Shown: positions 31,837 to 49,733 of the stretch, in pieces
Layout of the letters: every line of letters begins with the position of its first letter
Numbering within the stretch: the first letter of the stretch is position 1
Source of the DNA: an uncultured Pelagibacteraceae bacterium
Lineage (GTDB): Bacteria > Pseudomonadota > Alphaproteobacteria > Pelagibacterales > Pelagibacteraceae
DNA length: 64,000 nt
Direction of reading: 5' to 3'
Assembly (NCBI GenBank): GCA_902618485.1
Contig: CACNAR010000004.1
Coordinates: forward strand, 62,001-126,000
Made by a program: the position numbers and the translations under genes
Notes under the pieces: generated by a model
Database searches by the model: none
Seen by the model: the letters and a program-made list of their open reading frames with translations, nothing else
Told to the model about the DNA's origin: nothing

Positions 31837-32757
31837 TTAAGCTATAGATCTAAATAATCTTTTATTTATTAGTGAATGTGGAAGATTTCTCTCTTGAATT
31901 TCAATTATTGAAAAATTATCTTCATTTTCAAATACTTTTCTAAGTAATTGATTGGTCATAAAATGTCCACCTTGAGAACATTTTATGCTTGCTACCATTC
32001 TATAACCAGATGTGTATAAGTCTCCCACGCAATCAAGGATCTTATGATTAACAAATTCCAAAGAATTTCTTAAGCCATCTTTATTTAAAACTTTGTCGTC
32101 TTTAACAACAATGGCATTATCCAAACTACCACCTTTTGCAAGGCCTTTTTCTTTAATTTTTCCCACATCTTCGTATAAGCAAAAAGTTCTCGAGTTAAAA
32201 ATATCATCTAAATCATCCTCATAAATATTTACTTTATTTTTTTGTGTCCCAATAATTGGATTTTGATATTTTAATTCAAAATCAATTTCTAAGCTTAATT
32301 TAGATGGTTCAATTGATATAAATTTTTCATTGTCTCTATAAATTACTTTTTTATTAATTTTAATAATCTTGATAGGTGCTTCACTTTTTTCAAGTCCAGA
32401 TAACATTATCTTATTTATAAATTCTTTAGCTGAACCATCTAAAATTGGGACCTCCTCACTATCAATTTCTATTAAAACATTATCCACTCCTAGACCAAAC
32501 AAAGCTCCCATTAAATGTTCTATAGTAGAAACTTTAACACCATATTCATTAGAAATAGTAGTGTTAAGAACAGTATTATTGACATTAGAAAAATTTGGGA
32601 GAACTATATTGTTTATTTTTAGGTCAGTTCTTTTAAAAATTATTCCTGAGTTTGGTTCAGTTGGTTTTAAAGAGATATTTGAAATCTTTCCGCTGTGTAA
32701 ACCAACACCACTAAAATTTACAGGATTTTTTACAGTTTTTTGCGTAAGTAATTTCAC
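31837..32757 (-). CDS. lpxC: UDP-3-O-acyl-N-acetylglucosamine deacetylase
   Basis: A 306-residue zinc enzyme for the committed step of lipid A synthesis. VSTIEHLMGALFGLGVDNVLIEI carries a zinc histidine, SRTFCLYEDV the second-domain loop, and NHKILDCVGDLYTSGYRM the remaining zinc ligands. The length is normal. Its presence implies an LPS-bearing outer membrane. In many genomes ftsZ lies between ftsA and lpxC; here only 62 bases separate the mini-ftsA from lpxC. Confidence 0.95.
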   Translation of the reverse strand: MKLLTQKTVKNPVNFSGVGLHSGKISNISLKPTEPNSGIIFKRTDLKINNIVLPNFSNVNNTVLNTTISNEYGVKVSTIEHLMGALFGLGVDNVLIEIDSEEVPILDGSAKEFINKIMLSGLEKSEAPIKIIKINKKVIYRDNEKFISIEPSKLSLEIDFELKYQNPIIGTQKNKVNIYEDDLDDIFNSRTFCLYEDVGKIKEKGLAKGGSLDNAIVVKDDKVLNKDGLRNSLEFVNHKILDCVGDLYTSGYRMVASIKCSQGGHFMTNQLLRKVFENEDNFSIIEIQERNLPHSLINKRLFRSIA

Positions 32758-32819: not shown

Positions 32820-33524
32820 TTAACTAAATAAATCAAAAAATTTTTCAAAAAAACCCTTATTTTTTGATATTTTATTAACTAACTTGACCTCATTTTTATT
32901 ATGCCCTCCAATAATTTTACTAGTCATCTCAAAAAAATTAATATCCCTATCATTCACATATTTATCAATATAACTTGCACTTAAAATTTGATTTACTGAT
33001 ATTTGAAATTTCTTTAAAGTTTTTTCTACGTGTTTAACTAGTTCATTGGGTAGACAAATAAAACTTATGTCCAAAGAAAAATTTTTACATTTTTGATTAG
33101 GCGGTAATTCTGCAAAATGATTATTATCAATAAGATAATTATCAATTAAAATATGAATTATTCTCATGTTCTGAATAGTCTTTTCACATTGATATTTGGC
33201 ACTTTTTATTAAATATAGAATTATACTTGAATTAATATTTTCATTATGATTATGCTTTTTCATAGAAATTTGTAAATTAAAAAAATCACTTGTTTCTATT
33301 ATTATATTTATTTTTTCAACAAAATTTCCTAAAATTTTTTCAACTTTGAAAATATTTTCATTAAGAAATGAATCTAATTTATTAAAGTTTAATTGAGAAG
33401 AAGTATTTTCGAAAAAAATTTCATCTTTAAAAATTATCTTAAAATCAGTTTTATGATTAACAGATAATATTATTTTTTCTGGACTGAAAAATAAGAAAAC
33501 TTCAAAGTTTAAATCATTTTCCAT
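32820..33524 (-). CDS. Mini-FtsA: truncated, ATPase-less FtsA-like division protein
   Basis: A 234-residue protein in the ftsA position, directly after ftsQ. Residues about 98-185 resemble the FtsA 1C region: YLIKSAKYQCEKTIQNMR, then RIIHILIDNYLIDN (E. coli RVLHVIPQEYAIDY), then LDISFICLPNELVKHVEKTL and ISVNQILSASY (E. coli KVDQLIFAGLAS). The phosphate loops and all of lobe 2 are absent; normal FtsA is over 400 residues. The C-terminus ends in KNKGFFEKFFDLFS, an amphipathic helix like the FtsA membrane-targeting tail. I infer a membrane tether or FtsQ/FtsN-facing adaptor for FtsZ. The start overlaps ftsQ by 11 bases. Confidence 0.65.
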   Translation of the reverse strand: MENDLNFEVFLFFSPEKIILSVNHKTDFKIIFKDEIFFENTSSQLNFNKLDSFLNENIFKVEKILGNFVEKINIIIETSDFFNLQISMKKHNHNENINSSIILYLIKSAKYQCEKTIQNMRIIHILIDNYLIDNNHFAELPPNQKCKNFSLDISFICLPNELVKHVEKTLKKFQISVNQILSASYIDKYVNDRDINFFEMTSKIIGGHNKNEVKLVNKISKNKGFFEKFFDLFS

Positions 33525-34188
33525 TTATTATGACCTGATTGTCTTGACGAAGATCTAAAATCTTAATTTTTTTGAATTTGTTATTACTAATTAAATCAAA
33601 TGATAAATTTAGTGAATTTTCTAAATTTTTTTTAGGTAGTTTAATAATCATATTATCAATAGTTTCTATATCCCATCTACCCGATTTAAAGAAATATAGG
33701 TTTTTGATTTCAAATAATTTAAAATTAGATTTTTTTATAGATTTTAGCAAACTAAAAAAAGAATCTTTATTATAATCCCCATAGATGTTTGGTAGATTAT
33801 TATTTTTATCAACAGTCTGAATTAATTTGCCGTTTGAACCCAATACAAAAGATTTTCCATCTTTAAAAACATTAGCTAAAAATTTAGTTTTATTAATTCT
33901 AATTTCTAATGACGAAGGATACTTCTTAAATACAGTATAATTATCAATTAACTCATTAGCTTCTAACTTTTTTATAAGTTTATATTTATTTAAAAAAAAA
34001 ATATTTTTTAAATTAAGTAATTCAAGATTATTTAATAGATCTCGCCTTTCTTCTCCTTCCAACCCTCTTATCGTAATTTTATCTATATTTTTAAACTTAA
34101 TTTTAGAAAAAAATTTATTATTAAGGGTACTCAAAAAAATAATCAAAAAAATATATAATAGTATTTTTTTATTTAATCTTAATTGCAT
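33514..34188 (-). CDS. ftsQ: FtsQ, divisome POTRA-domain protein
   Basis: A 224-residue bitopic protein with one N-terminal membrane helix (ILLYIFLIIFLSTL), a POTRA domain (KNIDKITIRGLEGEERRDLLNNLELLNLKNIFFL) and a beta domain containing YPSSLEIRINKTKFLANVFKDGKSFVLGSNGKLI. FtsQ links FtsA/FtsZ to FtsL and FtsB. It has a short cytoplasmic tail of about 8 residues. It overlaps ddl upstream by 20 bases and the mini-ftsA by 11. Confidence 0.87.
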   Translation of the reverse strand: MQLRLNKKILLYIFLIIFLSTLNNKFFSKIKFKNIDKITIRGLEGEERRDLLNNLELLNLKNIFFLNKYKLIKKLEANELIDNYTVFKKYPSSLEIRINKTKFLANVFKDGKSFVLGSNGKLIQTVDKNNNLPNIYGDYNKDSFFSLLKSIKKSNFKLFEIKNLYFFKSGRWDIETIDNMIIKLPKKNLENSLNLSFDLISNNKFKKIKILDLRQDNQVIINGK

Positions 34189-40836: not shown

Positions 40837-41922
40837 TTATCTTAATTTGAGTGTTGCCAAACCAATCATAGCTAGAATTATTGAAATAATCCAAAATCTA
40901 ATAACAACTGTTGACTCTGGCCATCCTTTTTTTTCAAAGTGATGATGAATTGGTGCCATCTTGAAAATCCTTTTACCTGTCAGTTTAAAAGAAATTACCT
41001 GAACCATTACCGATACAGCCTCCAAAACAAAAAGGCCCCCTGTTATAGCTAATACAATCTCATGCTTAGTAATTATTCCTACAGCGCCCAAAGACCCTCC
41101 AAGAGATAAAGAGCCTGTATCTCCCATAAAAATTTTAGCTGGTGGTGCGTTAAACCATAAAAAACCAAGGCATGAACCTATGATTGCTCCACAAAAAATT
41201 GAAATTTCTCCCGTACCTTCTATATAAGGAATTTGTAAATAATCAGAAAATACTATATTTCCAGTTACATAACTTATAAATGCAAAACAAGCAGCTACCA
41301 ATATTACTGGAACAGTAGCCAAACCATCAAGACCATCTGTAAGATTTACAGCATTAGATGATCCAATTATTACGAAAACAGAAAAAGGAATAAAAAACCA
41401 TCCAAGATTTATTACAAGATTTTTAAAAAATGGGAAATATAAGTTGGACATATCTTGATAATCTACAAAGTAAACAAATAAACTTACCCCAACAACTGCT
41501 AACAAAATTTGTAAAATTATTTTTAGCTTAGAGGAAATTCCAGAGGAGTTACTGAACTTAATTTTTTTAAAGTCATCAAAAGCTCCAAGTAATCCAAAAG
41601 TAACAGCAATATAAATACAAAATAAAATATTTAAGTTCGATAAATCTGCCCAAAATAATACTGAAATTAATAACCCTAACAAAATGATTACTCCACCCAT
41701 TGTTGGGGTTCCTATTTTTTTTATAACATGATCCTCTGGGCCATCATCTCTAATTGGATTAAAAATTTTTTGGTTAGAGAAAAATTTGATAAATGGCCCT
41801 CCTATAATTAAAACAATCACCAAAGATGTAAACACAGATAGGCCAGTCCTAAACGTGAGATATTTAAACACATTCAAGAAACCGAATATATCAACAAAGT
41901 TTAATAAGAATTGGTATAACAT
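40837..41922 (-). CDS. mraY: MraY, lipid I-forming translocase
   Basis: A 361-residue protein with ten membrane helices. GTPTMGGVIILLG, GAFDDFKKIK, NLTDGLDGLA, FMGDTGSLSLGG and MAPIHHHFEKKGWPE are all diagnostic. It moves phospho-MurNAc-pentapeptide to undecaprenyl phosphate. The start overlaps the murEF stop by one base (TAATG), the classic coupled junction. Confidence 0.97.
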   Translation of the reverse strand: MLYQFLLNFVDIFGFLNVFKYLTFRTGLSVFTSLVIVLIIGGPFIKFFSNQKIFNPIRDDGPEDHVIKKIGTPTMGGVIILLGLLISVLFWADLSNLNILFCIYIAVTFGLLGAFDDFKKIKFSNSSGISSKLKIILQILLAVVGVSLFVYFVDYQDMSNLYFPFFKNLVINLGWFFIPFSVFVIIGSSNAVNLTDGLDGLATVPVILVAACFAFISYVTGNIVFSDYLQIPYIEGTGEISIFCGAIIGSCLGFLWFNAPPAKIFMGDTGSLSLGGSLGAVGIITKHEIVLAITGGLFVLEAVSVMVQVISFKLTGKRIFKMAPIHHHFEKKGWPESTVVIRFWIISIILAMIGLATLKLR

Positions 41923-44762
41923 TAATTAACACCTTTTAACTCTTTTATTATCTTATTGAAACCTGTCGCGTTTGAAGCCTTAACCATAAGACTATCATTA
42001 TTATTTAAATCATTTCTAATCAAATCAATAATTTGAGATTTATTGGATAAAACTCGACCCTTTTTTGAATCTGAGAGTTTTTCAAACATTAATTTCATAA
42101 AGCGACCTTTTATGAAAACTTTATCAATATTAGTTTTATTGATTGTGGCTGCGATTGACTGATGAAGTTTTTTTGAATGTTTTCCTAACTCTAACATATC
42201 CCCAAGCAAAAGATACTTTTTGAATTTTTTTGAAATAATCTTGTCATAATTCAAGATAGCAGATTTTAATGATAATGGATTTGAATTATAGCTTTCATCA
42301 ACTAAATTAATATTTTTATTAAAAATTTTAATTTTTGATAAATCTCCTCTACCTTGGGGTACTTTAAACTTAAAGAAAGTATTTTTATTTAATCGAAGAA
42401 TATTGATATAAATACTCATGATAGCTAGTGCAGCTAAAATATTATAAATATTATTTTGAAAATTATTTGTAACTAGAAAATATTTTTTTAATTTGTTAAC
42501 TTGAATATAAAGTTGAAAGTATTTACCTTTATTTTTGATATCTAAAAATTTTACACTTGAATTTTTATTTTTTATTCCAAAAGAAATAAGTCTGAGATTA
42601 TTCTTAATAGCTATTCTTTTATGTAAATTAAAAAAATTATCGTCAGCATTTAATACTACAAAACCACCTTGTTTAGTGTTTTGAATAATTTCAGATTTGG
42701 CAATTGCAATTTCCTTAATATTTTTAAAATTTTTAGCATGTGCAAAATTAATATTTGTAATTACACTAACGTTTGGTTGTATAACACTACTTAAATAATC
42801 TATTTCACCTTTTTTATCCATTCCAACTTCTAAAACACCAAAATCATCATTCTCTTTTAAGTTTAATAAACTTAAAGGAACTCCATATCTATTATTATAA
42901 GATTTTGGAGAAATACTTACTTTGGAGATTTTTCTTAAAGTTTCTCCTAATAATTCTTTAAGAGTTGTTTTTCCACAACTTCCAGTAATAGCTATTAAAT
43001 TTGTACTTATGTTTGTCCTAAAAATTTTTGAAACATTGGTTAAAAATTTTAATGTGTTCCTAACTTTTATTTGCCTATTAACTTGAAATTTTTTTTGAAT
43101 TCGATTCACTACAGCAATTGAGGCTTTATTTTTAAACGCATGATTTACAAATTTATTTCCATCGTTTTTTTTTCCTTTAATTGCAAAAAAAAAGTCATTT
43201 TTCTTAACCTCCTGTGAATTAATTCTAGCAAGATTCAAAGGCAACTTTGTGGGTAATTTTTTGTTGAGTGACAACTCTCTTATGATATTAAATTTTAGGT
43301 TATTAGATAAATTTAGATTTTTTTTTTTGATTGAATCTAAAATAACTTGTTTGTCTGAAAAATAAATTTTTTTACTACCAAAGTCTTGTGTTTTTTCGTG
43401 ACCTTTTCCTGCGATAAGTAATATTTCACCTGTATTTAAATTTTCAATCGCTTTAAATATCGCTTTAGACCTATCCGATATTTCAATAATTTTTTTGTTA
43501 TTTATTCCTTTTTTAATATCTCCCCGAATTTTTTTTGGATCTTCATATCTTGGATTATCATCTGTAAGATAAATTTCATCAGAATAGTTTGATGCGATCT
43601 TACCCATTTTAGATCTTTTATTTTGATCTCTATTTCCACCACATCCAAAAAGTAAAGAAATTTTTTTATTTTTAAATTGCTCTCTTAAATTTAGTAAACA
43701 AGTTTTCAAAGCCTCTGGGGTATGAGCATAATCAAGGATTACTTTTGAATTATTTTTAATTCTACCAATTTTTTCAGATCTGCCCTCAACTGGTATTATA
43801 CGTGGTAAAACTTGGAAAATTCTGTTTAGACTTAATTTGCTTTTTTTTGCTGCAATGATTGCCATCAAAATATTTTTTACTTGGATTTTACCAATTAGAT
43901 TAAGTTTTATAATTTTAATTGATCTTTTATATTTTATTTTTATTACTTGCATCTCTCCTTGATAAGAATGAGACAAAATTTTAAATGAATTATTACTATT
44001 TATTTTGTGAAGTTTAAGATTTTTTTTTAATGAAATTTTTTTAATATTATTAAACTCTGGTAATTTATCATCTGTTATAATATGACCAGATTTTTTGATA
44101 AGATTTTCAAATAAATAAAGTTTTGATTTAAGATAATTTCTTAAACTTTTATGGTAATCTAGGTGATCTTGAGAAAAATTTGTAAATATTCCCAAATTAA
44201 ATAACAAACCATCAAGTCTATTTTGTTTAAGACCATGACTTGAAGCCTCCATAATTACATTTTGAATTCCTCTTTTTTTCAATTTATTCAATATTTTTCC
44301 TAAACTGATTGGATCAATTGTGGTGTTAGGTAAATCAAAGTTAATACCGTCAGACTTAACTCCTAACGTTCCAATAGAGGCAACTTTTTTATTATTCAAT
44401 TTTAATATTTGATAGTAAAAATCAGAGACAGATGATTTTCCATTTGTTCCAGTAATTGCAATCAAATTTTTTGGTAGATTTTTATAAATTTTAAAAGAAA
44501 TTTCTGCCAATAATTTTCTAACATTTTTAGTGTAAATGAATAAAATTCCTTTGAATTTCTTTTTGATTTTTTTTTCAGTTATAATAATTCTAGAACCCTT
44601 TTTTATTGCAAGTGGTATAAAATCATTACCATCAAAATTATTTCCTTTTATTGCAAAAAAAATATAATTTTTTTTGATCTTTGAACTTTCAAAAGCAATA
44701 CCAGAGAAAAAGATTTTAGAATATTCTTTCTTAATTTCTGGAATATAATCTTCGAGCAGCAT
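41922..44762 (-). CDS. Fused MurE-MurF bifunctional Mur ligase
   Basis: One uninterrupted 946-residue frame holds two complete Mur ligases. Residues 1-475 are MurE: ATP loop GTNGKSS (105-111), HGLKQNRLDG, DYAHTPEAL and DNPRYEDP (402-409), the DNPR form that selects meso-diaminopimelate. Residues about 495-946 are MurF: LARINSQEVKKNDFFFAIKG, ATP loop GSCGKTT (594-600), SYNNRYGVPLSLL and YNSNPLSLKSA. The halves echo each other (FFAIKG...DGN; LIAITG). The fusion should channel UDP-MurNAc-dipeptide to pentapeptide. It replaces the separate murE and murF of this position. Confidence 0.93.
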   Translation of the reverse strand: MLLEDYIPEIKKEYSKIFFSGIAFESSKIKKNYIFFAIKGNNFDGNDFIPLAIKKGSRIIITEKKIKKKFKGILFIYTKNVRKLLAEISFKIYKNLPKNLIAITGTNGKSSVSDFYYQILKLNNKKVASIGTLGVKSDGINFDLPNTTIDPISLGKILNKLKKRGIQNVIMEASSHGLKQNRLDGLLFNLGIFTNFSQDHLDYHKSLRNYLKSKLYLFENLIKKSGHIITDDKLPEFNNIKKISLKKNLKLHKINSNNSFKILSHSYQGEMQVIKIKYKRSIKIIKLNLIGKIQVKNILMAIIAAKKSKLSLNRIFQVLPRIIPVEGRSEKIGRIKNNSKVILDYAHTPEALKTCLLNLREQFKNKKISLLFGCGGNRDQNKRSKMGKIASNYSDEIYLTDDNPRYEDPKKIRGDIKKGINNKKIIEISDRSKAIFKAIENLNTGEILLIAGKGHEKTQDFGSKKIYFSDKQVILDSIKKKNLNLSNNLKFNIIRELSLNKKLPTKLPLNLARINSQEVKKNDFFFAIKGKKNDGNKFVNHAFKNKASIAVVNRIQKKFQVNRQIKVRNTLKFLTNVSKIFRTNISTNLIAITGSCGKTTLKELLGETLRKISKVSISPKSYNNRYGVPLSLLNLKENDDFGVLEVGMDKKGEIDYLSSVIQPNVSVITNINFAHAKNFKNIKEIAIAKSEIIQNTKQGGFVVLNADDNFFNLHKRIAIKNNLRLISFGIKNKNSSVKFLDIKNKGKYFQLYIQVNKLKKYFLVTNNFQNNIYNILAALAIMSIYINILRLNKNTFFKFKVPQGRGDLSKIKIFNKNINLVDESYNSNPLSLKSAILNYDKIISKKFKKYLLLGDMLELGKHSKKLHQSIAATINKTNIDKVFIKGRFMKLMFEKLSDSKKGRVLSNKSQIIDLIRNDLNNNDSLMVKASNATGFNKIIKELKGVN

Positions 44763-46454: not shown

Positions 46455-46758
46455 TTATTTCAAAAGTATTTAGGTCACTAATAAATAAACCATTAGATTT
46501 TTTGATTAATGTTTTTATTGAATTTATATCTTTGTTAATTAGTTCCTTTTCGAAATACTTTAATTGATACTCAAGTAATTTTTCTGTTGAACTTAAATAT
46601 TCAAATTCTAATCTAGTATCACCTAGCTCATTTTCAGAAACTCTTAAACTTTCTTTTACTGCAAAAATTTCATCTTCAATTTTTTTTGTAGAATTTTTTA
46701 TTATTGCAGTAGAAAATATCAATAGAAATATGAAAATAATTACTAAAATTTTTTTCAT
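46441..46758 (-). CDS. ftsL: FtsL-like divisome protein
   Basis: A 105-residue bitopic protein: one membrane helix at the N-terminus ([17 protein letters not shown]), then a heptad-like helix (about 25-75) suited to a coiled coil with FtsB. Size, topology and the position between rsmH and ftsI identify it; the sequence itself diverges quickly in this family. It overlaps rsmH by 4 bases and ftsI by 14. Confidence 0.8.
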
Positions 46759-47765
46759 AATTTATTACTTATATTTTCTACTTCAATCAAAGATTTAAAT
46801 TTCTTAAATACATCAGTATCAAAATTATAAAAATTTTTTTTTTTTATAATAAATCTCAATTTTGCAGATCTAGATGATATATTTTCACTTAACTCTTTTT
46901 TACCTGGAACAATAGGCTTTCTCTGTTTTGTAAAAAACAAAGGTTCTGACTCAATTATTTTAGGTTGGTATCGTGAGATACTTTTATTTTCCGATAAACT
47001 CCTAAAAAAATATTTTACAATCTTATCCTCTAATGAGTGAAAACTAACTACTGCCAATATTCCATTCTTTTTTAGAATTTTGGTAGCATTTATTAATCCA
47101 TGAATTAATTCACTAATTTCTTTATTAACGAATATTCTAATTGCCTGAAAAACTTTCGTTGAACTATGAATTTTAGCATTATTTCTTCTTTTTACCGATT
47201 CGATAATATTCACTAAATTCTGTGTATCAATTTCTTGCTTTACTCTTTCATTCACTATTCTATTTGCAATCTTTTTTGCGTCTTTTTCTTCACCGAAATA
47301 TTTGAAAATTTTTTGTAAGTCATTAGACTCTAATTTATTGATCACCTCTTTTGCTGAAAAATCATTCAAGCCTAATTTCATATTTAGTTGACCTTGAGAA
47401 CTAAATGATAATCCTTTCTCATTATCTTTTATTTGATTTAAAGAATAACCCAAATCAAAGATTACTCCTTTAATATTTTCATTTTTTAACTTTAAATTAT
47501 TTAATTGACTAAATTTAATATTCTTAAAAAAAAACCTATCTTCAAAATTTCTGCTAATTTGGTCTGCTATTTTTTTACTCTTAACATCTCTATCAATACC
47601 TATTACTTTAGTATTTGGAAATTTAAGTATCTCTTTTGAATATCCGCCTTGACCAAAAGTACAATCAATAAATGTGCCACCATATTGAGGGGAAATAATG
47701 CTAATGATTTCTTCTAGCAATACTGGATAGTGATTTAATCTATCCAGTGCTATGGTGGCTTCCAT
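46755..47765 (-). CDS. rsmH: 16S rRNA m4C1402 methyltransferase RsmH (MraW)
   Basis: A 336-residue SAM-dependent enzyme: [13 protein letters not shown], then the SAM site [40 protein letters not shown] and [16 protein letters not shown]. It N4-methylates C1402 in the ribosomal P site. It is usually directly after mraZ, but here ftsZ is placed between them. Confidence 0.95.
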
Positions 47766-47783
47766 TTATTTTTTCGAAGACCA

Positions 47784-49259
47784 TTAATTTTTTTGTCTTC
47801 TTAAAAATGCGGGAATTTCAAGATCATCCTCTTCTTTTTCATCCTCTGAGGAGTCCTGGAGATCGTTTGGCTCTAAATTATTATTTTCAGAACTGAATAA
47901 ATCTGGCTCGTTAGTATCAACTCCAAATTCTCTAAGGTCATTTTGATTATCTTGTTTTTTTTCCGCAAAATCTGAAGTTTCATTGGAAAAATATGTCTCG
48001 TTACTCTCAGGAACAATATCATTTAATTTCTCAATTTCTTGGTTTTTTAAAAGTTCCTCATGATATTGGTTATTAACTTCATCGACAGATTGTGAATTGA
48101 TCGAATGACTCATATTTTCTGTAACAACTTCATTCTCAAGTTTTAAAGCATTAGCTCCATGGGAAACAGGTGCTGAATTGTTACCAGAAAAATGGAATGA
48201 TTGTGTTGGATTAACGTTTGAAAAATCTGAATAACCAGTATTTCTATTTTGAATTCGATGGACCATATTAATCACAGATTTTGATTCAGGCTGCTTTCCA
48301 TCTAAAGCAGTAGCAACAATTGAAACTCGGATTTTACCATCCAAAGATGGATCAATTATTGATCCATTTATTATTTCAGCTTCTACATCAACTTCAGATC
48401 TTATTTTATTTACAATTTCATCTACCTCAAAAAGTTTTAAATCTTCGCCGCCAGTAATATTTATTAATAGACCTTTTGCGCCTTTTAAAGAATACTCATC
48501 AATTAGTGGATTATTCAAAGCTAATTCAGTAGCTTTATCTGCTCTACCTTCGCCTTCAGCTTCCCCTGTTCCCATCATAGCTTTACCCATTGAGCTCATA
48601 ACAGTTTCAACATCAGCAAAATCTAAATTAACTAAACCATCCTTTACCATTAAATCTGTTACACTTTGAACTCCATGTCTTAAGATACTATTTGATAATT
48701 GAAAAGACTCTTTATATGTAGTTTGTTCGTTTGCAACTTTGAATAAGTTTTGATTAGGAATTACTATAATAGTATCCACATGTTTTCTCAGTTCCTCAAG
48801 GCCCTCGTGTGCTCTTCTCATTCGTGACGGTGCCTCATATAAGAATGGTAATGTTACTACGCCTACAGTAAGAATGTTTAATTCTTTAGCTGCTCTAGCA
48901 ATTACGTGTGCTGCTCCAGTACCAGTTCCACCTCCCATTCCAGCCGTAATAAAAACCATATTGGCACCTTTAAGAATATCAATTATATCATTTAAAGATT
49001 CATTAGCTGCTGCTAAACCTATCTCGTGTTTCGCTCCAGCACCTAAACCTTTTGTCAAATTAACCCCAAGTTGAATCCTTGTTTTTGATTTGCTTGTTTT
49101 TAAATCTTGTGCATCAGTGTTTACTGCAACAAATTCAACTCCTTCTACACCTGCATCAATCATTTCATTTATTGCATTACCTCCAGCTCCTCCAACTCCA
49201 AGAACTAATATTCTAGGTTTTAATTCTTTTATCTCCGGCACTTTAAAATTAATTGTCAT
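47784..49259 (-). CDS. ftsZ: FtsZ, tubulin-like division GTPase
   Basis: A 491-residue protein. The GTPase core (about 1-320) has [14 protein letters not shown], the tubulin loop GGGTGTG (109-115) and [21 protein letters not shown] long acidic linker (about 345-475, N/E/D/S rich) precedes the C-terminal peptide [12 protein letters not shown], which binds FtsA and other tethers. Its place directly after mraZ and before rsmH is unusual; in most dcw clusters it follows ftsA near the end. Being second after the promoter should give it high, MraZ-linked expression. Confidence 0.97.
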
Positions 49260-49277
49260 TTTATCCCCCTCTTTTTT

Positions 49278-49733
49278 CTATTTGTTAAATTGACTCTCCC
49301 ATTTAAGACTTGAACGATTTAAATTTGCTTTTTTTCTAGCGTTTGCCCTAAATTTTTCAAAAATTGTTGGTTCCCAAATTTGAAAAGTTTTTCCTTGACC
49401 AACAAAAATCATACTATTTTTTATTTTCGCATGTTTTAGTAATTTTGAAGTCAGTGAAATTCTACCTTCACTATCAAATTGTAAATTTGTACTCTCAGAT
49501 AAAATCGATGTTGCAAAAAAATCTCTTTTTTCTTCAAATGGACTTAATGTATCTATTGTGTTAGAAATTTTTTCTATTCTGTCTTGAGGCCATGCTTCTA
49601 TTGATTGATTATTGAAAGAGGGATAACAAATTATACCATTATAACCAAGACTAGATAAATATGATCTAAAACTTGCAGGCACAGACACCCTTCCTTTTTT
49701 GTCTAGTTTGTTTTCGTACGTCGATAAAAACAT
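49278..49733 (-). CDS. mraZ: MraZ, transcription regulator of the division cluster
   Basis: A 151-residue protein with two AbrB-like repeats: YENKLDKKGRVSVPASFRSYL near the N-terminus and LQFDSEGRISLTSKLLKHA from about residue 84. Both DxxGR motifs are present. MraZ forms a ring that binds repeats in its own promoter and usually represses the cluster. The expected three-repeat box lies upstream at 49764-49787. It is the first gene of the minus-strand cluster, with ftsZ 18 bases behind it. Confidence 0.94.
   Translation of the reverse strand: MFLSTYENKLDKKGRVSVPASFRSYLSSLGYNGIICYPSFNNQSIEAWPQDRIEKISNTIDTLSPFEEKRDFFATSILSESTNLQFDSEGRISLTSKLLKHAKIKNSMIFVGQGKTFQIWEPTIFEKFRANARKKANLNRSSLKWESQFNK

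What the first reader, a model, noticed from the sequence alone, without database searches (positions are those of the whole stretch)
32820..33524. Mini-FtsA: an ATPase-less FtsA remnant with SHS2-like domain and amphipathic tail
Seen: the gene after ftsQ encodes 234 residues. RIIHILIDNYLIDN...LDISFICLPNELVKHVEKTL...ISVNQILSASY follows the order of the FtsA 1C region, no phosphate-binding loops are visible, and the C-terminus is an amphipathic KNKGFFEKFFDLFS helix. Known: normal FtsA has over 400 residues, polymerises through an actin-like ATPase and tethers FtsZ. Inference: this lineage kept the divisome-facing domain and membrane anchor but lost actin-like assembly, a possible minimal FtsZ tether.
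Basis: partly seen in the sequence, partly recalled or inferred. Interest (0 to 1): 0.72.

Follow-up and report, generated by a model that had tools for sequence, protein, structure and literature searches.

The report
FtsA stripped of its actin-like core
In many SAR11 ocean bacteria the cell-division protein FtsA has lost its nucleotide-binding, filament-forming half, keeping a partner-facing domain and a likely membrane tail, so these cells seem to divide with an FtsA that cannot work in the textbook way.

Summary
Window 32820-33524(-) encodes 234 aa between ftsQ and lpxC. It is FtsA with about 140 residues missing from the middle: the AF2 model (pLDDT 87.8) has FtsA chains as its first 19 Foldseek PDB hits and superposes on the N-terminal half of 1A, on 1C and on the last 1A helix. 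Subdomains 2A/2B and the phosphate-1 loop are gone; the amphipathic tail stays. Full-length FtsA sits in this slot in other members of the genus and in the listed members of nine other genera. Of 399 same-genus genomes, at least 136 carry a complete short form (220-246 aa), none of these 136 has the missing core elsewhere, and 104 of the 399 have the core. The short gene is under purifying selection (dN/dS 0.11-0.32, 16 pairs). 'Minimal FtsZ tether' is not supported by the anatomy: the known FtsZ-tail site lies in the deleted 2B, yet FtsZ keeps [10 protein letters not shown] in 21 of 21 short-form rows. Best reading: a nucleotide-free, non-filamentous membrane adaptor to the late divisome. What binds the FtsZ tail is open, and so is the number of deletions (1 plus recombination, or 2-4).

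The parts
32820..33524 (-). short ftsA gene, 234 aa, including the stop codon 32820-32822
33285..33524 (-). residues 1-80: N-terminal part of subdomain 1A (strands and one helix); phosphate-1 loop residues replaced
   Evidence: DSSP of the model; D and G of the loop present in 23/26 and 24/26 full-length but 0/24 and 4/24 short rows; boundaries approximate
33000..33284 (-). residues 81-175: subdomain 1C (SHS2)
   Evidence: PF02491 94-154, below its cut-off; PDB FtsA alignments; boundaries approximate
32955..32999 (-). residues 176-190: strand and helix of 1A after 1C
32937..32954 (-). junction where about 141 residues (rest of the 1A core, 2A, 2B) of the full-length protein are missing
   Evidence: Y-to-E span 27-29 residues in 24 short rows against 169-171 in 8 HTCC1062-type full rows
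32910..32936 (-). residues 197-205: last helix of 1A
32862..32909 (-). residues 206-221: linker with conserved N-x-x-E-V motif
   Evidence: E212 invariant in A1; shared with HTCC1062-type full-length FtsA
32823..32861 (-). residues 222-234: amphipathic tail NKGFFEKFFDLFS, probable membrane anchor
33514..34188 (-). ftsQ, upstream neighbour
31837..32757 (-). lpxC, downstream neighbour (used as anchor to find the slot in other genomes)
   Evidence: named by me from the sequence; alignment A4 and slot synteny
47784..49259 (-). ftsZ, 491 aa
47787..47822 (-). codons of the FtsZ C-terminal peptide [12 protein letters not shown], kept although the FtsA site for it is deleted

Best explanation
The gene is a trimmed FtsA. 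Shown by sequence and models: it keeps half of subdomain 1A, the whole of 1C, the last 1A helix and the amphipathic tail, and it lacks 2A, 2B and the nucleotide site. Inferred: it sits on the membrane by its tail and acts as a nucleotide-independent adaptor. It presents 1C, possibly paired laterally 1C to 1C, to late divisome proteins, and it cannot form FtsA protofilaments because the longitudinal IIA-IIB contact is gone. Inferred further: the FtsZ tail, still under constraint, is bound by some other protein in these lineages.
For: Anatomy. Selection and breadth. No core elsewhere: own genome (the other hits are a 348-aa and a 648-aa frame, which I take for MreB and DnaK) and 136 of 136 complete short-form genomes. 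Literature passages: the lateral filament contact is made almost only by IC, the longitudinal one by IIA-IIB, and FtsN binds the IA-IC cleft (PMC7613929); the FtsZ peptide site is in 2B (PMC9098913); a model in which freed 1C recruits late divisome proteins (PMC5508204). A second AF2 model, of the outlying G431 short form, has the same order of elements (pLDDT 87.6); its alignment holds 13 other short forms, so it is not independent.
Against: No binding partner was shown. No FtsN was found: the SPOR hits over the cut-off (4 of 10 genomes) are a lipoprotein-like protein. The adaptor role is read from work on E. coli and Vibrio FtsA. No alternative FtsZ tether was identified: SepF gave no hit over its cut-off in 10 genomes, ZipA no hit at E<=1 in 10. 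Both AF2 models rest on 12-14 sequences. Membrane binding is untested and the tail's moment is only moderate.
Confidence: 0.5

Rival explanations
1. Minimal FtsZ tether: the short protein still anchors FtsZ to the membrane, through a new site for the FtsZ tail on 1A/1C.
For: FtsZ keeps [10 protein letters not shown] in 21 of 21 short-form rows in which ftsZ was on the stretch, and the amphipathic tail is kept. ZipA and SepF were not found over their cut-offs in 10 genomes, so some tether is needed.
Against: The known site is in 2B, which is absent from the short forms. The FtsZ tail serves other partners too in other bacteria (recalled).
Confidence: 0.27
2. Repurposed remnant: the protein no longer serves division but does another membrane-adaptor job, as the FtsA-like proteins PilM and GspL do.
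For: PilM and GspL are the next structural matches after FtsA. The short forms differ much in sequence: 28-42% identity to the window protein in A1.
Against: It stays in the dcw cluster, overlapping ftsQ, with the same tail and several 1C positions as full-length relatives.
Confidence: 0.13
3. Decaying pseudogene left by genome reduction.
For: Intact relatives exist. Four of 103 loci carry a frame break: three short (G012, G164, G511) and one full-length (G010).
Against: At least 136 of 399 genomes have complete frames of 220-246 aa. dN/dS is 0.11-0.32 in 16 pairs, against 0.14 in each of 3 full-length pairs.
Confidence: 0.02
4. Split gene: the ATPase core is encoded elsewhere and the two parts work together.
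For: None found.
Against: Core profile A3 has no match at E<=0.001 in the own genome or in any of 136 complete short-form genomes, which include the single-contig genomes G106, G322 and G409.
Confidence: 0.02

Closest known systems
Full-length FtsA of the same genus (e.g. G427, whose contig size fits HTCC1062)
   Same: slot between ftsQ and lpxC, 1A N-part, 1C, last helix, 23-residue tail with E-V motif
   Different: has about 141 more residues (phosphate-2, 2A, 2B, adenosine motif; motif names recalled) and the D-x-G loop
E. coli / Vibrio / Xenorhabdus / Thermotoga FtsA (7q6d, 7q6f, 7q6i, 7q6g, 1e4f, 1e4g, 4a2a, 4a2b)
   Same: fold of the 1A half and 1C (Foldseek E 5e-13 to 8e-11; VIA Z 11.9-12.8)
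   Different: no nucleotide site, no longitudinal filament face, no FtsZ-tail site in the short form
Cytoplasmic domain of GspL/EpsL (4pht, 1yf5, 1w97) and PilM
   Same: FtsA-like fold used as an adaptor; GspL also falls short of a complete actin-like core (recalled); VIA Z 10.4-11.3 over 149-159 residues for GspL/EpsL
   Different: type II secretion and type IV pilus systems, different anchors, no ftsQ neighbourhood

Membership tests
FtsA (equivalog TIGR01174) | place in the dcw cluster after ftsQ | tested here: met
FtsA (equivalog TIGR01174) | subdomain 1C (SHS2) | tested here: met
   PF02491 is over its cut-off in the G431 short form and below it in the window protein; it is also below it in the full-length G427 protein
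FtsA (equivalog TIGR01174) | C-terminal amphipathic helix | tested here: met
   93 of 96 distinct sequences match a tail motif that I wrote after seeing the alignment; the other 3 differ in its first residue
FtsA (equivalog TIGR01174) | score over the curated cut-off | tested here: not met
   17.6 against 175.85 bits; 9 of 12 A1 members match at E<=0.1, best 2.1e-10; single members also match two unrelated families, best E=0.0012
FtsA (equivalog TIGR01174) | actin-like nucleotide-binding core (phosphate 1, phosphate 2, adenosine motifs; 2A, 2B) | tested here: not met
FtsA (equivalog TIGR01174) | binds the FtsZ C-terminal peptide through 2B | tested here: not met
   the subdomain is absent; site. 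Binding by another surface was not testable
FtsA (equivalog TIGR01174) | ATP binding, membrane binding, filaments | not testable with these tools
   needs biochemistry
GspL / PilM | neighbourhood of type II secretion or type IV pilus genes | tested here: not met
   the neighbouring genes examined are dcw and envelope genes; genes further out in the window were not identified

The most novel reading that the evidence does not exclude
A large part of the SAR11 genus runs FtsZ-based division with an FtsA that binds no nucleotide, forms no FtsA protofilament and has no known seat for the FtsZ tail. In these free-living cells FtsA polymerisation and ATP use would be dispensable, 1C plus a membrane tail would be the indispensable minimum, and an unidentified protein would hold the FtsZ tail. 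The same cut may have arisen more than once.
Probability: 0.45. Interest if true: 0.85.

Novelty: new variant of a known kind. Interest (0 to 1): 0.72.

Why it matters
Whether FtsA must polymerise or use ATP for division is a long-running question, argued mainly from mutants (recalled). Here is a natural, selected deletion of that whole half, spread over a genus of very abundant ocean bacteria, with full-length sisters in the same genus as controls. It also exposes a missing part: something must bind an FtsZ tail that has stayed unchanged.

Tried and rejected
Rejected: pseudogene; split gene; FtsN found through the SPOR domain: six frames were looked at (L315-L320), four of them over the cut-off, all lipoprotein-like and beside two cell-wall-enzyme-like frames, which fits RlpA (neighbours and name judged by eye). 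The weaker SPOR hits of G515 and the second one of G409 were not looked at. SepF and ZipA as replacement tethers in 10 genomes, 6 short and 4 full: SepF none over the cut-off (controls: rings in 10 of 14, over the cut-off in 7), ZipA none at E<=1 (controls: 3 of 14, over it in 1). SepF gave two sub-threshold hits, E 0.06 and 0.08, in 186-aa frames of G000 and G322; not followed.

Number of deletions: the tree of 7 neighbouring genes (41 rows, 2428 columns) needs 3 changes and does not put the short forms in one clade. On a 24-row subset the one-clade tree is rejected (lnL 194.9 lower; p-AU far under 1e-20; such small values are not exact), and so is one clade without G431 (lnL 104.2 lower). 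The free and all-short trees first used came from a search stopped by the time limit; repeats with the -fast search gave the same likelihoods. The other four constraints came from the -fast search only and were named after seeing the tree. The ftsA gene itself does not reject one clade: p-AU 0.32 on 50 rows and 0.24 on 38 of those rows. The junction length is nearly the same in all groups, 27-29 residues, which argues for one deletion followed by recombination as much as for repeated constrained cuts. I leave it open.

Dropped rows: of 105 fetched loci listed, 103 had an ftsA hit and 93 had enough of both lpxC and ddl for the first tree; duplicate loci of one genome were left out by hand. One search left out 12 of 50 rows for speed. 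Only part of the fetched loci went into each tree. Five of 58 genomes of at least 90% completeness showed neither form (G102, G104, G131, G142, G192). In four of these no lpxC was found either, and in G142 lpxC starts 119 bases from the contig end, so the slot is off the contig. I take these for assembly gaps. Nine listed genomes of genus g8 had no A2 match at E<=1e-8, and 10 more genomes without a match were not listed; I did not follow them. Four of 58 of the more complete genomes lack the FtsZ-tail DNA pattern (G080 and G165 short, G110 full, G102 neither); not followed.

Whether this is in print: searches, 87 of open-licence PMC papers; among the listed titles and abstract beginnings (lists were capped, e.g. 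20 of 945) I saw no paper on a shortened FtsA in SAR11. Subscription journals are mostly missing from that library.

Full report
WHAT IS THERE. The minus-strand frame 32820-33524 starts with ATG, overlaps the end of ftsQ by 11 bases, encodes 234 residues and is followed by lpxC. The genes around it are the dcw cluster: MraZ, FtsZ, RsmH, a small frame in the place of ftsL without a Pfam hit, FtsI, a Mur-ligase fusion (MurE-MurF by my reading), MraY, MurD, FtsW, MurG, MurC, MurB, Ddl, FtsQ. Tested against Pfam here are MraZ, FtsZ, the Mur-ligase fusion, the small frame, FtsQ and BamD/YfiO; the other names are my reading of the sequences. FtsZ is not next to ftsA but between mraZ and rsmH.

IT IS A CUT-DOWN FTSA. 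Alone, the protein hits the FtsA model weakly (TIGR01174 E=0.0015). In 61 genomes (own and relatives) a search with the protein gave a match at E<=1 in 26, mostly in open frames of either about 231-237 aa or 377-398 aa. Aligned, the short form equals the long one minus a block: both ends match. The profile of 12 short forms against the profile of 10 long ones gives hhalign probability 99.9 over residues 5-190. The profile of the long ones finds FtsA crystal structures (1e4f E=1.7e-13); that of the short ones finds them weakly (7q6d E=0.0005). AF2 with the 12-row alignment gives mean pLDDT 87.8, pTM 0.82. Foldseek against the PDB lists FtsA chains in ranks 1-19, then PilM and GspL. VIA aligns model residues 3-213 to FtsA chains from residues 2-8 to residues 376-392, with Z 11.9-15.2 over 194-204 residues, so the last helix is used and the middle is skipped.

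WHAT IS MISSING. From the conserved tyrosine after 1C (histidine in one row) to the conserved glutamate before the tail, 24 short rows have 27-29 residues and 8 HTCC1062-type long rows have 169-171; the other long rows have 173-200. The block holds most of the positions that are near-invariant in long forms; that these are phosphate-2, 2A/2B and adenosine motifs is recalled from FtsA structures. The D and G of the phosphate-1 loop, which lie in the retained part, are present in 23/26 and 24/26 long rows but 0/24 and 4/24 short rows, while E57 (23/24), H119 (22/24) and tail F362 and F366 (24/24 each) stay (numbering of the G427 open frame). D72 and K85 are kept in 12/24 each. The nucleotide site was abandoned; much of the 1C face and the tail were not.

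HOW COMMON. In 399 genomes of the genus (a sample of a larger group) the short profile matches in 275 and the core profile in 104; 100 genomes have both, because long forms match both. Among 58 genomes of at least 90% completeness: 18 have the core, 30 a complete short form, 5 a partial short match (G012 with a frame break; G180, G360 and G384 at contig ends; G165 not examined) and 5 neither. Long frames of the genus listed are mostly 370-406 aa. In a sample of 197 genomes of the order, the 46 listed rows from the nine other genera have frames of 378-420 aa (one with a stop inside) except one of 320 close to a contig end; rows further down were not listed. In 10 fetched stretches of other genera the long ftsA lies beside lpxC. 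I infer that the long form is ancestral. Eighty named loci from the LpxC scan all carry Pelagibacteraceae, Pelagibacterales or Ca. Pelagibacter ubique in their titles: 63 have a complete short form of 220-244 aa, 15 one cut by the contig end, 2 no slot, and none a core match. They were chosen by LpxC similarity to the window, so this is not a census.

ISOLATES. Contig lengths 1,308,759 (G427, long, 370 aa), 1,456,888 (G409, short, 233 aa), 1,343,202 (G012, short, one frame break), 1,284,727 (G515, long, 406 aa) and 1,237,371 (G425, long, 400 aa) agree with the sizes in a table of PMC3815206 for HTCC1062 (1309 kb), HTCC7211 (1457), HIMB5 (1343), IMCC9063 (1284) and HIMB114 (1237) (passage seen). 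The match is by size only.

SELECTION. Nei-Gojobori dN/dS for 16 pairs of short forms is 0.11-0.32; for 3 long pairs it is 0.14 each. ftsQ of the same pairs (18 of 19) is 0.08-0.28 with one of 0.44, and lpxC 0.04-0.15. Some loci occur in two pairs.

HISTORY. On the neighbour-gene tree the short forms fall in four places, with the HTCC1062-type long forms nested among them, and one short form (G431) next to a long one (G025), support 99/98. One clade is rejected by the neighbours but not by ftsA itself. One deletion with later recombination, or two to four deletions, remain possible.

MECHANISM. From the literature passages: FtsN binds the IA-IC cleft, IC makes the lateral filament contacts and IIA-IIB the longitudinal ones (PMC7613929, passages); the FtsZ peptide binds 2B (PMC9098913, passage); in one model freed 1C recruits late proteins (PMC5508204, passage). 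The short protein keeps the parts that carry the first two and loses those that carry the longitudinal contact and the FtsZ site. FtsZ of short-form genomes nevertheless keeps [10 protein letters not shown] (21 of 21 short rows with ftsZ on the stretch; 14 of 14 long rows have EIPAFLR[RK]Q; ftsZ was off the stretch in 6 of 41), and the DNA pattern for it is in 291 of 399 genomes and 54 of 58 of the more complete ones. So a receptor for the tail should remain, either the short FtsA by a new surface or another protein. ZipA gave no hit and SepF none over its cut-off in 10 genomes, and no FtsN-like SPOR protein was seen. I favour the adaptor reading, at 0.5, because the known tether site is absent.

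VERDICT. Real, conserved, functional by its selection pattern, and a new variant of FtsA rather than a new family. It fails the FtsA membership test on its core features while descending from FtsA.

Noticed in passing
window 41922-44762: Two Mur ligases in one 946-aa frame (two middle and two C-terminal Mur-ligase stretches), by my reading MurE-MurF.
   Followed up: partly
window 46755-49733: ftsZ lies between mraZ and rsmH instead of after ftsA. In 35 of 41 rows (40 fetched stretches and the window) ftsZ was within 20 kb of ftsA; its exact neighbours there were not checked.
   Followed up: partly
L025:1320-2019 (G012), L209 (G164), L272 (G511), L032 (G010): Frame breaks in ftsA: three short forms and one long form; real or sequencing error not known.
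   Followed up: partly
L316:1465-2205 and L315, L317-L320: A lipoprotein-like SPOR protein between two cell-wall-enzyme-like frames (looks like RlpA, by eye); no FtsN-like SPOR protein over the cut-off in 10 genomes.
   Followed up: partly
window 32886-32900 and L284: A conserved N-x-x-E-V motif sits before the tail in short forms; a similar x-x-x-E-V stands in HTCC1062-type long forms and a few others but not in most other long ones. Possible partner motif.
   Followed up: no
L325 (G000:C4:15382-15447) and L326 (G322:C1:928922-928984): Sub-threshold SepF-like match in a 186-aa frame of two short-form genomes (E 0.06 and 0.08).
   Followed up: no
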